Source: Synechococcales cyanobacterium PMM_0003 (GTDB lineage: Bacteria; Cyanobacteriota; Cyanobacteriia; Pseudanabaenales; Pseudanabaenaceae). Taken from it: a stretch of DNA of 17,169 bases. Shown here in pieces: positions 7,316 to 8,652 of this stretch; positions within the stretch are counted from its first letter, which is position 1, and each line of letters begins with the position of its first letter. The stretch lies in NCBI GenBank assembly GCA_949128015.1, contig CASBRC010000003.1, forward strand, positions 1 to 17,169, written 5' to 3'. The position numbers were made by a program, and so were the translations under genes. The notes below the pieces were generated by a model, which saw only the letters and a list, made by a program, of their open reading frames with translations, searched no databases and was not told the origin of the DNA.

Positions 7316-7654
7316 TTAATAACGGTCACGACCGCCGCCGCCAGAGGGGCGACCACCGCCGCCGCCACCTTTGTAGCCGCCACGACCGCCGCCACCAAAT
7401 GAGTCAGAGCTTTCGCGGGGCTTAGCCTTATTCACTTTGAGCGCACGACCCATCCATTCGGCTTCGTCTAGTGCTTCGATCGCAGCGTCTTCTTCCTTTT
7501 CGTCAGTCATTTCAACGAAAGCGAAACCGCGTGGACGACCTGACTCACGATCAATCGGTAGATGAACACGAGTGATTTTGCCATATTCTGCAAATACGGC
7601 TTTCAAATCATCTTCTGTAACCTCATAAGAGAGATTACCAACATAAATAGACAT
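7316..7654 (-). CDS. RRM-domain RNA-binding protein with glycine-rich tail (cyanobacterial Rbp type)
   Basis: 112 residues. A single RNA recognition motif fills residues 1-80: RNP2 is IYVGNL (3-8) and RNP1 is RGFAFVEM (42-49), with the aromatic residues that stack on RNA bases in place. Residues about 85-112 are a Gly/Arg-rich tail (GGGGRGGYKGGGGGG). This is the layout of cyanobacterial Rbp proteins, many of which rise in the cold and bind transcripts; cold induction here is family knowledge, not seen directly. The gene is monocistronic, convergent with the taxis operon, with a terminator directly after its stop. Its start ATG is the only one that keeps the RNP2 strand at the normal distance from the N terminus. 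Upstream lies more than 200 bases of leader, which fits the long 5' untranslated regions known for cold-responsive rbp genes. Confidence 0.95.
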   Translation of the reverse strand: MSIYVGNLSYEVTEDDLKAVFAEYGKITRVHLPIDRESGRPRGFAFVEMTDEKEEDAAIEALDEAEWMGRALKVNKAKPRESSDSFGGGGRGGYKGGGGGGRPSGGGGRDRY

Positions 7655-7860
7655 AATACTTGCTTCAACAATCAGATATGTGTAGAGATAGAGATTTCGG
7701 AAAGAAGCCTGTCACGATGAAACAGAAGACGACTGTCAATACTGAAAACAAACATGCGATCTAGAAATACTCATCCGCACATATTCTAGCTTAGTCATCT
7801 TCAATTAGTTGCTGATCTTGAAAATATTTACGCCCATACAGCAAAAAACATATGAAATCG
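7655..7860 (-). other. Probable promoter and 5' leader region of the RRM gene
   Basis: No open frame or repeat is seen here. On the minus strand a TTGACA (complement of 7734-7739) could be a -35 box, but no good -10 sits at the expected distance, so I do not call a promoter. The stretch ends at the mobile element that begins at 7870. Confidence 0.35.
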
Positions 7861-8009
7861 GGAGTAATACAGCAATTCTCATTATAAAAATTGGTTTTTT
7901 GAAAGGCAGCCTACGGCTGCCTTTCAAAAAACCAATTTGGGTGTTTGCAGCGCCATAGGCGCTGCAAACACCCAAATTGGTTTCATAATGAGAATTGCTG
8001 GGAGTAATA
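7861..8009. repeat. 9-bp direct repeats flanking the 7870-8000 element (target-site duplication)
   Basis: GGAGTAATA occurs exactly at 7861-7869 and again at 8001-8009, directly outside the inverted repeat ends. Exact direct repeats abutting both ends are the signature of transposase-mediated insertion. Confidence 0.8.
7870..8000. mobile_element. MITE-like non-autonomous element, 131 bp, with two long internal hairpins
   Basis: The ends are 16-bp perfect inverted repeats: CAGCAATTCTCATTAT at 7870-7885 and its complement at 7985-8000, flanked by 9-bp direct repeats. Inside are a 24-bp perfect stem with a 3-base loop (7888-7911 with 7915-7938) and a 26-bp perfect stem with a 3-base loop (7929-7954 with 7958-7983). 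The two stems share bases 7929-7938, so they cannot both be fully extended. No transposase or convincing ORF is present; a 91-codon minus-strand frame crosses it only by chance. It sits between the RRM gene and the doxX gene. The transposase family that would move it cannot be named from this window; a 9-bp duplication fits several insertion-sequence families. Similar elements are expected elsewhere in the genome. Confidence 0.82.
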
Positions 8010-8049
8010 CCTATCAGTAGATAGACATAATTAAATATAAAGTTAAATA

Positions 8050-8106
8050 CCAAACTTAAAAAGCTGTGGTACACACGCAACGTGTGCCACAGCTTTTCGA
8101 GTTTGG
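8050..8106. repeat. Long interrupted hairpin downstream of doxX
   Basis: Outer arms CCAAACT (8050-8056) and AGTTTGG (8100-8106), then a 2/2 internal loop, then AAAAGCTGTGG (8059-8069) with CCACAGCTTTT (8087-8097), a 2-base bulge, and CACACG/CGTGTG around a CAA loop. It lies 18 bases past the doxX stop on the minus strand and may act as its 3' structure. The middle stem matches the hairpin at 6595-6632, so both are probably copies of one palindromic repeat. Confidence 0.75.
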
Positions 8107-8124
8107 GTTATTTATTACGTCCAC

Positions 8125-8652
8125 CTACTTAGTTGCAGTAAGCCTTACTGAAGGCTCTGTTGATTTGACATCAGCAGAAACAGTCAACCATTTAGTCAAG
8201 GCGTTGGTGATTAACGAATCGATCGCATATTTGCCACCACCGTAAATCACAAAAAAGGCAAAGGATGCGGCATATATCGAAGACAGCTCAATTGACGGAA
8301 TTGAAAAGCCACCGATCAAAATATGATGATAATTTGCCACCATCATCGTTGCAAACAGTCCCAAGGCAGCAGGTCTAGTCAGTAACCCTAAAATTAACAG
8401 TGGCGAAGCAACTACTTCGGTTATCGCCGCGCAGTAAGCAAAGAAGATCGGGAATGGTAGACCGATTGCTTCAACATAGGCTTCAGCAAAGCCAGAAATG
8501 TCGGCTAGTTTATCGAAACCGTTATGGATAATCATTGTCCCAAGCACAACTCTAAGCAAAAGAAGTGCTGATTGGGTCAGTGAGACTGGTGCGGAGTCTG
8601 AACCGAGGATTAGACGAACGATAGATGCTGTGGTGCGAGTTGTGTTGTTCAT
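8125..8652 (-). CDS. DoxX family membrane protein
   Basis: 175 residues, mostly hydrophobic. Four membrane helices are visible at about 26-45, 68-90, 92-108 and 122-140. The first ends in RVVLGTMIIHNGFDKLAD and is followed by the GFA-rich loop; ITEVVASPLLILGLLTRPAAL (about 77-97) is the most typical stretch of the DoxX/DoxD-like family (quinol-oxidase-associated or redox-stress membrane proteins in other bacteria). A charged tail (about 160-175) is probably cytoplasmic. Substrate or partner is not evident and the family name does not establish an oxidase role here. It is transcribed divergently from rseP across a 285-base A/T-rich gap and appears monocistronic. The ATG at 8652 was taken because it gives a short polar N terminus before the first helix. 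Confidence 0.85.
   Translation of the reverse strand: MNNTTRTTASIVRLILGSDSAPVSLTQSALLLLRVVLGTMIIHNGFDKLADISGFAEAYVEAIGLPFPIFFAYCAAITEVVASPLLILGLLTRPAALGLFATMMVANYHHILIGGFSIPSIELSSIYAASFAFFVIYGGGKYAIDSLITNALTKWLTVSADVKSTEPSVRLTATK

What the first reader, a model, noticed from the sequence alone, without database searches (positions are those of the whole stretch)
7861..8009. Complete-looking MITE with 16-bp terminal repeats and 9-bp target duplication
The 131-bp block 7870-8000 has perfect terminal inverted repeats (CAGCAATTCTCATTAT) and is bounded by an exact 9-base direct repeat GGAGTAATA. Removing the block and one copy leaves a continuous simple sequence. It carries no transposase, so it would depend on one elsewhere. 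Exactness of both the ends and the duplication suggests recent insertion. The identification of ends is seen in the sequence; mobility is inference.
Basis: partly seen in the sequence, partly recalled or inferred. Interest (0 to 1): 0.75.

Follow-up and report, generated by a model that had tools for sequence, protein, structure and literature searches.

The report
Double-hairpin miniature transposon in cyanobacteria
This is a real, non-coding mobile DNA element, one of many copies in a cyanobacterial genus, with the same ends as a larger transposase-carrying element; its two inner hairpins seem to be kept near-perfect by copying errors that also flip their loops.

Summary
Window 7870-8000 is a 131-bp element with perfect 16-bp terminal inverted repeats (TIRs) and an exact 9-bp target duplication. 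It is a MITE, on four tests. (1) The end sequence occurs 65 times in its own genome (up to 2 mismatches), against 0 for a reversed control. (2) Of 135 TIR-bounded candidates held, 46 have an exact 9-bp duplication, one has 10 bp, and none another length. (3) The site is empty in relatives; three keep a recognisable single-copy target. (4) A congener carries a 1,418-bp insertion sequence with identical ends and 9-bp (rarely 10-bp) duplications. No close copy of its transposase was found in the window's own incomplete genome. The unexpected part lies inside: the element folds as a Y, a TIR stem plus two abutting hairpins with 3-nt loops. Across 43 copies the hairpin arms change in concert (110 double-changed cells; the TIR stem has 1), and loops occur in both orientations. 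The closest sibling differs only by two flipped loops. This is the signature of replication template switching. The same Y plan, with hairpins showing no detectable sequence similarity, occurs in a second cyanobacterial family. Movement and template switching are inferred, not shown.

The parts
7861..7869 (.). left copy of the 9-bp target duplication GGAGTAATA
   Evidence: family duplications are 9 bp, once 10 bp
7870..7885 (+). left 16-bp terminal inverted repeat CAGCAATTCTCATTAT
   Evidence: identical to both ends of the 1,418-bp IS of congener G020
7888..7938 (.). hairpin 1: arms 7888-7911 and 7915-7938, 24 bp, 100% complementary, loop TAC 7912-7914
   Evidence: I2; covariation across copies
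7939..7973 (.). hairpin 2: arms 7939-7954 and 7958-7973, 16 bp, loop ATA 7955-7957 (can extend to 26 bp, 7929-7983, in competition with hairpin 1)
   Evidence: I1; covariation across copies
7888..7897 (+). direct repeat AAATTGGTTT, first copy; its partner is 7974-7983. Deletion between them gives a 45-bp form like those seen elsewhere
   Evidence: (D4)
7985..8000 (-). right 16-bp terminal inverted repeat
8001..8009 (.). right copy of the 9-bp target duplication
   Evidence: single copy at the empty site in three relatives
7316..7654 (-). neighbouring gene, 112 aa, reads as an RNA-recognition-motif (Rbp-type) protein; synteny anchor. The name is my reading; no family search was run on it
8125..8652 (-). 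neighbouring gene, 175 aa, reads as a DoxX-type membrane protein; synteny anchor. The name is my reading; no family search was run on it

Best explanation
It is a non-autonomous MITE that inserted between two genes by transposition. A DDE-type transposase recognised its two TIRs and made a 9-bp staggered cut in the target. The transposase came from an insertion sequence of the family found in congener G020 (1,418 bp, 435-aa transposase, same ends). Inside, the two hairpins are kept near-perfect mainly by DNA replication: the polymerase switches template between the arms of each short hairpin, copies one arm onto the other and inverts the loop. Shown here: ends, duplication, family, empty site, an IS with the same ends, concerted arm changes, loops in both orientations. 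Inferred: that this IS family moved this copy, and that template switching causes the concerted changes.
For: Exact TIRs and duplication. First count: of 81 TIR-bounded candidates with flanks, 27 have an exact 9-bp duplication, 46 at least 8 of 9, none an exact duplication of another length from 4 to 13; with right flanks shuffled among candidates, 0.63 candidates per shuffle reach 8 of 9, about what chance self-pairing gives. Recount over all loci held: 46 of 135 exact 9 bp, 1 of 135 exact 10 bp, no other length. IS in G020: of 14 fetched copies of 1,416-1,419 bp, 10 have an exact 9-bp and 2 an exact 10-bp duplication, all with the identical 16-bp TIRs. IS-sized pairs of these ends over all loci held: 25 of 48 exact 9 bp, 4 of 48 exact 10 bp, no other length, so MITE and IS share the same duplication habit. 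Related ends with 9-bp duplications occur in named Pseudanabaena biceps, Laspinema, Leptolyngbya, Arthrospira and Desulfoferrobacter records. The element is absent from 14 of 14 congener loci that hold the DoxX-like neighbour, 10 of which also hold the other neighbour; in 3 of those 10 one copy of the target is recognisable. Hairpins: in 43 full-length copies, double-changed Watson-Crick cells are 57 (hairpin 1) and 53 (hairpin 2) against shuffle means 11.5 and 5.9, but 1 in the TIR stem against 0.9. 16 of 24 and 13 of 16 hairpin pairs have changes on both sides, 1 of 16 TIR pairs. One-sided G-T states in the hairpins are 13 cells (summed). Loops occur in both orientations: GTT 11/AAC 9, TAC 8/GTA 4, GAA 11/TTC 10, AAA 5/TTT 5. 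The closest sibling (G000:C353:650-780) is identical at all 125 non-loop positions and has both loops exactly reverse-complemented. Arm homogenisation plus spacer inversion is the stated outcome of template switching in PMC8604942 (start of abstract in the listing only).
Against: No close copy of the partner transposase was found in the window's own genome, only a 46% relative whose ends match 11 of 16 positions by my count and which has no 9-bp duplication; that genome is 76.8% complete in 503 contigs, so absence proves little. Six congeners rich in the element (G005, G008, G010, G012, G016, G019) have no match to the transposase at E 0.001, so those copies are stranded or moved by something else. 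Most candidates lack an exact duplication (54 of 81; 88 of 135), as expected of old copies, and the lists include some false end pairings. Loops also differ in ways that are not flips: among 156 pairs of copies with at most 8 non-loop differences, loop 1 is the same in 30, flipped in 27, other in 99; loop 2 same in 34, flipped in 41, other in 81. Covariation cells count sequences, not independent events.
Confidence: 0.85

Rival explanations
1. The hairpins are conserved because the transcribed RNA (terminator, mRNA stabiliser or small RNA) is under selection, and the double changes are ordinary compensatory evolution.
For: On the minus strand, the direction of both neighbouring genes, a consensus scan finds terminator-like sites at both hairpins (6 overlapping calls; shuffles average 0.3). 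The Y elements have strong RNA fold energies.
Against: RNA selection does not explain loops in both orientations in similar numbers, nor the sibling that differs only by two loop flips. Compensatory RNA evolution should leave many one-sided G-U states; 13 hairpin cells are in that state against 110 double-changed. No Rfam family reaches its gathering score.
Confidence: 0.12
2. It is a palindromic repeat of REP/BIME type and the 9-bp repeat is coincidence.
For: Palindromic, intergenic, many copies.
Against: Exact 9-bp duplications in 46 of 135 candidates, one of 10 bp and no other length; TIRs identical to an IS; empty site.
Confidence: 0.02
3. The copies of the own genome were mobilised by its resident 46% relative (G000:C88), not by a G020-type IS.
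For: It is the only match to the transposase in the own genome, and its ends also begin CAGCARTTC.
Against: Its ends depart from the MITE after the ninth base, whereas the G020 IS ends match 16 of 16.
Confidence: 0.1

Closest known systems
Nezha MITE of cyanobacteria (Zhou, Tran and Xu 2008)
   Same: Cyanobacterial MITE proposed to be moved by ISNpu3-like elements (stated in PMC3049150, one passage seen).
   Different: The original paper was not seen, so its end sequence, length, duplication and fold could not be compared; I recall a length of about 134-142 bp, from memory only. It may use the same IS family; untested.
Insertion sequences with transposases of about 435 aa, some homologues named ISNCY family
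   Same: Identical or near-identical TIRs (CAGCAATTCTCATTWT) and 9-bp, rarely 10-bp, duplications.
   Different: They code for a transposase; by eye the MITE interior shares only the ends and a few adjacent bases with the IS.
Other MITEs with the same ends (122, 130-131, 141-142 and 146 bp)
   Same: Same TIRs, non-coding size, 9-bp duplications.
   Different: No double perfect hairpin in the ten such copies folded; other interiors.
Quasipalindrome template switching (E. coli, yeast)
   Same: Homogenised inverted-repeat arms and inverted spacers (PMC8604942, PMC7202029: starts of abstracts).
   Different: Studied there as mutation at particular sites or in genes; here the pattern is seen across copies of a mobile element family.

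Membership tests
MITE | short, no coding capacity | tested here: met
   131 bp. The only listed ORF of 60 aa or more that overlaps it (7805-8080, minus, 91 aa) runs through both flanks and the palindromes and is not taken as a gene.
MITE | terminal inverted repeats | tested here: met
   16 of 16 bp
MITE | target site duplication | tested here: met
   exact 9 bp here; family 46 of 135 candidates 9 bp, 1 of 135 10 bp, no other length
MITE | multiple dispersed copies | tested here: met
MITE | an autonomous element with the same ends | tested here: met
   in congener G020; not found in the window's own incomplete genome
MITE | demonstrated transposition | not testable with these tools
   only the empty-site comparison was possible
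ISNCY-named / DDE_Tnp_1 family (the partner IS) | match to a curated family profile | tested here: inconclusive
   The G020 protein is below cut-off in Pfam (DDE_Tnp_1 13.6 against 23 bits) and NCBIfam; homologue P0034 passes DDE_Tnp_1 with 25.9 bits. 'ISNCY' is a source's name for some homologues.
Nezha | Nezha end sequence and interior | not tested
   original paper not seen; some searches gave secondary mentions only
REP/BIME | no target duplication | tested here: not met
   9-bp duplication
REP/BIME | GTAG/CGTC tag and RAYT partner | not tested
   no search was made

The most novel reading that the evidence does not exclude
The Y fold itself is what is selected: extruding two hairpins would bring the two ends of a stiff 131-bp element together and help the transposase pair them. 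Template switching keeps the hairpins perfect while their sequence drifts, so the plan (16-bp TIR stem, two abutting hairpins, 131-133 bp) is inherited or re-invented without sequence conservation. In support: the same plan, with hairpins that give no BLAST match outside the ends, occurs in genomes G151 and G059 of another cyanobacterial family. Against: MITEs of 122-146 bp with the same ends and without the double hairpin have also duplicated their targets (7 of 10 with exact 9 bp), and one hairpin of the G059 copy has a large, imperfect apex.
Probability: 0.25. Interest if true: 0.7.

Novelty: new variant of a known kind. Interest (0 to 1): 0.45.

Why it matters
MITEs are common, but this family makes several things testable at once: which IS moves it, when a copy inserted, and how palindromes inside mobile DNA stay perfect. 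The loop flips look like a natural record of template switching, readable in many copies, with the TIR stem of the same element as internal control. If the Y plan is selected, it would be a structural rather than a sequence requirement of a transposon.

Tried and rejected
Unpaired TIR sites of the own genome and G002 (ORFs listed for three of the loci) gave degenerate MITEs and no transposase gene that I recognised; the IS came from G020. The 1,319-bp end pair in G022 (L088) looks like two MITE copies flanking a non-transposase gene, not an IS. Rfam matches inside the element are all below gathering scores. Palindromic 87- and 89-bp forms of the own genome lie at contig ends with mirrored flanks (L014 21 of 21 bases; L020 inverted with small differences; L158 5 of 5), probably assembly fold-backs; they are not used as evidence, but they were not removed from the candidate counts where they had enough flank and two of them are the own-genome hits. 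The candidate counts also hold some false end pairings (in one search: 37, 170, 186, 194 and 224 bp), not removed. For covariation, 43 of the 56 oriented elements were used: 12 of other lengths and one 131-bp row (L008, wrongly oriented by my motif rule) were dropped. The plasmid and phage collections hold no DNA match to the element. Literature: no held paper contains both Pseudanabaena and 'miniature inverted-repeat transposable'; the end sequence string gave two papers, judged unrelated from their titles and not opened. Papers seen: passages of PMC10969869, PMC3733652, PMC2246112 and PMC3049150; all others as listings. A possible helical phasing of MITE lengths was noticed, not tested. Correction made on re-checking: I had taken the 10-bp duplications of two G020 copies for 9 bp plus a chance base; they are true 10-bp duplications, and recounts all loci.

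Full report
WHAT IS THERE. Window 7870-8000 has perfect 16-bp terminal inverted repeats (CAGCAATTCTCATTAT) and is flanked by an exact 9-bp direct repeat GGAGTAATA. Between the ends lie two perfect hairpins of 24 and 16 bp with 3-nt loops. With its duplications the strand folds as a three-way junction at -64.5 kcal/mol against a shuffle mean of -16.9 (DNA parameters, z -16.1, 0 of 200 shuffles as good).

IT IS A FAMILY. In the own genome (G000: 3.1 Mb, 503 contigs, 76.8% complete) the element with its duplications gives 91 BLAST matches; a palindrome matches itself on both strands, so this is not a copy number. The end sequence occurs 35+30 times with up to 2 mismatches, against 0+0 for the reversed control. 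In one search, 21 of 38 genomes matched: the own one and 20 of 22 congeners, but 0 of 15 genomes of other genera.

IT TRANSPOSED. I collected TIR-bounded stretches of 32-240 bp in the loci held at the time: 82 candidates, 81 with enough flank. An abutting exact 9-bp direct repeat is present in 27 of 81, and 8 or 9 matches in 46 of 81; no exact repeat of 4-8 or 10-13 bp was found. A recount over all loci held at the end, with T or A allowed at position 15 of the ends, gives 46 of 135 with exactly 9 bp, 1 of 135 with exactly 10 bp, 88 of 135 without an exact repeat, and no other length. Both lists contain some false pairings. At the window's site no pair of element ends is found in 14 of 14 congener loci that hold the neighbouring DoxX-like gene; four of them have a single weak end elsewhere in the locus. 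Both neighbours are present in 10 of the 14. Eight of the 22 congeners were not in that search. Three of the 10 keep a recognisable target. G000 reads GGAGTAATA-[element]-GGAGTAATA-CCTAT; the relatives read GAAGTAATA-CCTAT (L125), GAAGTAATA-CCTAC (L122) and GAAATAATA-CCTAT (L131), one copy each. A fourth (L134) is partly similar; the other six have diverged too far to read.

THE PARTNER. Congener G020 carries many copies of a 1,418-bp IS whose two ends are exactly the MITE's 16 bp. Of 20 stretches fetched, 19 are from G020: 14 with an IS of 1,416-1,419 bp, one with a 2,679-bp copy, three with 141-bp MITEs and one with a single end; the twentieth is from G022. Of the 14, 10 have an exact 9-bp and 2 an exact 10-bp duplication; the other two belong to copies with a partial second unit attached. 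The 2,679-bp copy and the three 141-bp MITEs have exact 9-bp duplications. Among all IS-sized pairs of these ends held (1,380-1,450 bp), 25 of 48 have exactly 9 bp, 4 of 48 exactly 10 bp and 19 none. The transposase (435 aa) reaches no Pfam cut-off itself, but homologue P0034 passes DDE_Tnp_1. Sources name some homologues 'ISNCY family transposase'. Of 62 of the 80 named loci that I scanned for ends (L210-L271), 19 have an exact 9-bp duplication, among them Pseudanabaena biceps O153, Laspinema olomoucense, Leptolyngbya sp. PCC 7375 (two), Desulfoferrobacter suflitae (four of four) and Arthrospira sp. PCC 9108 (10 of 14, and 2 of 14 with 10 bp). A relative in another family of the class, G030 (48% identity), has ends CAGCARTTTYAATTTTAGAA and 9-bp duplications in the four loci read.

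WHERE THE PARTNER IS MISSING. In the own genome the transposase search gave only a 46% relative (G000:C88), with ends starting CAGCARTTCCAAATTC and no 9-bp duplication. Six congeners rich in the MITE (G005, G008, G010, G012, G016, G019; 26-44 matches each) gave no transposase match. The element may therefore be stranded in much of the genus, moved now and then by incoming copies of the IS. This last step is inference.

THE HAIRPINS ARE KEPT NEAR-PERFECT. In 43 full-length copies (own genome and congeners) the TIR stem mutates without compensation: 1 double-changed cell, 57 broken, shuffle means 0.9 and 59.2. The hairpins change in concert: hairpin 1 has 57 double-changed and 30 broken cells (shuffle means 11.5 and 121.7), hairpin 2 has 53 and 17 (5.9 and 107.4). 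The formal count on 42 distinct rows agrees: 97.1% of cells paired, 30 of 56 pairs with a change on both sides, 0 of 500 shuffles as high. That shuffle does not allow for relatedness, and cells count sequences, not events; sliding the partner by 1-3 columns gives 35.6-48.9% paired and 6-10 such pairs. The TIR stem, read from the same sequences, is the better control: 1 of 16 pairs has a change on both sides, against 16 of 24 and 13 of 16. One-sided G-T states make up 13 hairpin cells against 110 double-changed.

LOOPS FLIP. The commonest 3-nt loops occur as reverse-complement pairs in similar numbers (loop 1: GTT 11/AAC 9, TAC 8/GTA 4; loop 2: GAA 11/TTC 10, AAA 5/TTT 5); some rare loops occur in one orientation only, such as TTA. 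The closest relative of the window copy, at G000:C353:650-780 with its own 9-bp duplication, is identical at all 125 other positions and has both loops exactly reverse-complemented. Against a simple picture, loops also change otherwise: in 156 pairs of copies with at most 8 non-loop differences, loop 1 is same/flipped/other in 30/27/99 and loop 2 in 34/41/81. Arm homogenisation with spacer inversion is what template switching between short inverted repeats produces (PMC8604942, start of the abstract in the listing; not read further). I therefore attribute the palindromes mainly to DNA replication, not to selection on an RNA. This is inference from pattern. Whether the flip happens in place or during transposition is open.

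SHORT FORMS. Eight candidates are 45 bp long, only the ends and a 13-bp core; some have decayed ends. Deleting between the two AAATTGGTTT repeats of the window copy gives exactly that form, so slippage past the hairpins would explain it. At least one has an exact 9-bp duplication (L039).

BREADTH. Exact ends (A or T at position 15) 85-115 bp apart occur in 27 of 388 genomes of the class, in 10 of 160 genera. In the 26 genus genomes no exact-ended pair lies 115-145 bp apart; pairs 25-85 bp apart occur in 5 of 26, seven elements, two of them the suspected fold-backs. A covariance model of the Y form matches 28 of 388 genomes at E 1e-5: 22 of 26 in the genus, some weakly, and 6 in one other family, in 4 genera. 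Of those six I could confirm two as Y elements. G151: six copies read, one with a ruined hairpin; duplications 9 of 9 in one, 8 of 9 in three, 3 of 9 in two. G059: one copy, 9 of 9, with one large imperfect hairpin apex. Five of these seven copies were compared by BLAST with the 56 oriented Pseudanabaena-type elements and match only at the ends. L348 and L349 showed no pair of ends, L350 only a poor one, and G176 matched one hairpin. The shared plan without detectable shared sequence may be descent with hairpin turnover, horizontal transfer, or convergence; I cannot separate these.

EFFECT HERE. The element lies 215 bp upstream of the start of the RNA-binding-protein-like gene, just beyond the stretch conserved among relatives. 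On the minus strand, in which both neighbours read, its hairpins look like terminators (consensus only). No effect on either gene is shown.

VERDICT. The element belongs to a MITE family whose likely IS partner is identified by shared ends and duplication habit.

Noticed in passing
window 8043-8131: A second repeat family: a single imperfect hairpin (arms 8050-8074/8082-8106) that recurs at more than 20 listed places in the own genome and in several congeners (G002, G003, G006 and others). By eye it sits where some relatives have a terminator-like hairpin behind the DoxX-like gene.
   Followed up: no
L084 (G020:C3:253900-257700): A 2,679-bp copy of the partner IS carries a second transposase gene (380 aa; passes Pfam DDE_Tnp_1, below cut-off for NCBIfam IS701 and IS4 models), while its outer 9-bp duplication is intact.
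   Followed up: partly
G020, G004, G005, G006, G018, G044, G186 and others: MITEs with the same ends cluster at 122, 130-133 and 141-142 bp, steps of about one helical turn; in G044 the 131- and 141/142-bp forms look like one family. Families are not independent, so no test was made.
   Followed up: no
L333, L079, L081, L223, L233: True 10-bp target duplications occur now and then in both the MITE (1) and the IS (4).
   Followed up: partly
L014, L020, L158: Palindromic 87- and 89-bp forms at contig ends with mirrored flanks, probably assembly fold-backs caused by the hairpins.
   Followed up: yes
L072 and L076 (G020): IS copies with a partial second unit sharing one end, giving composites of 1,906-1,907 bp.
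   Followed up: no
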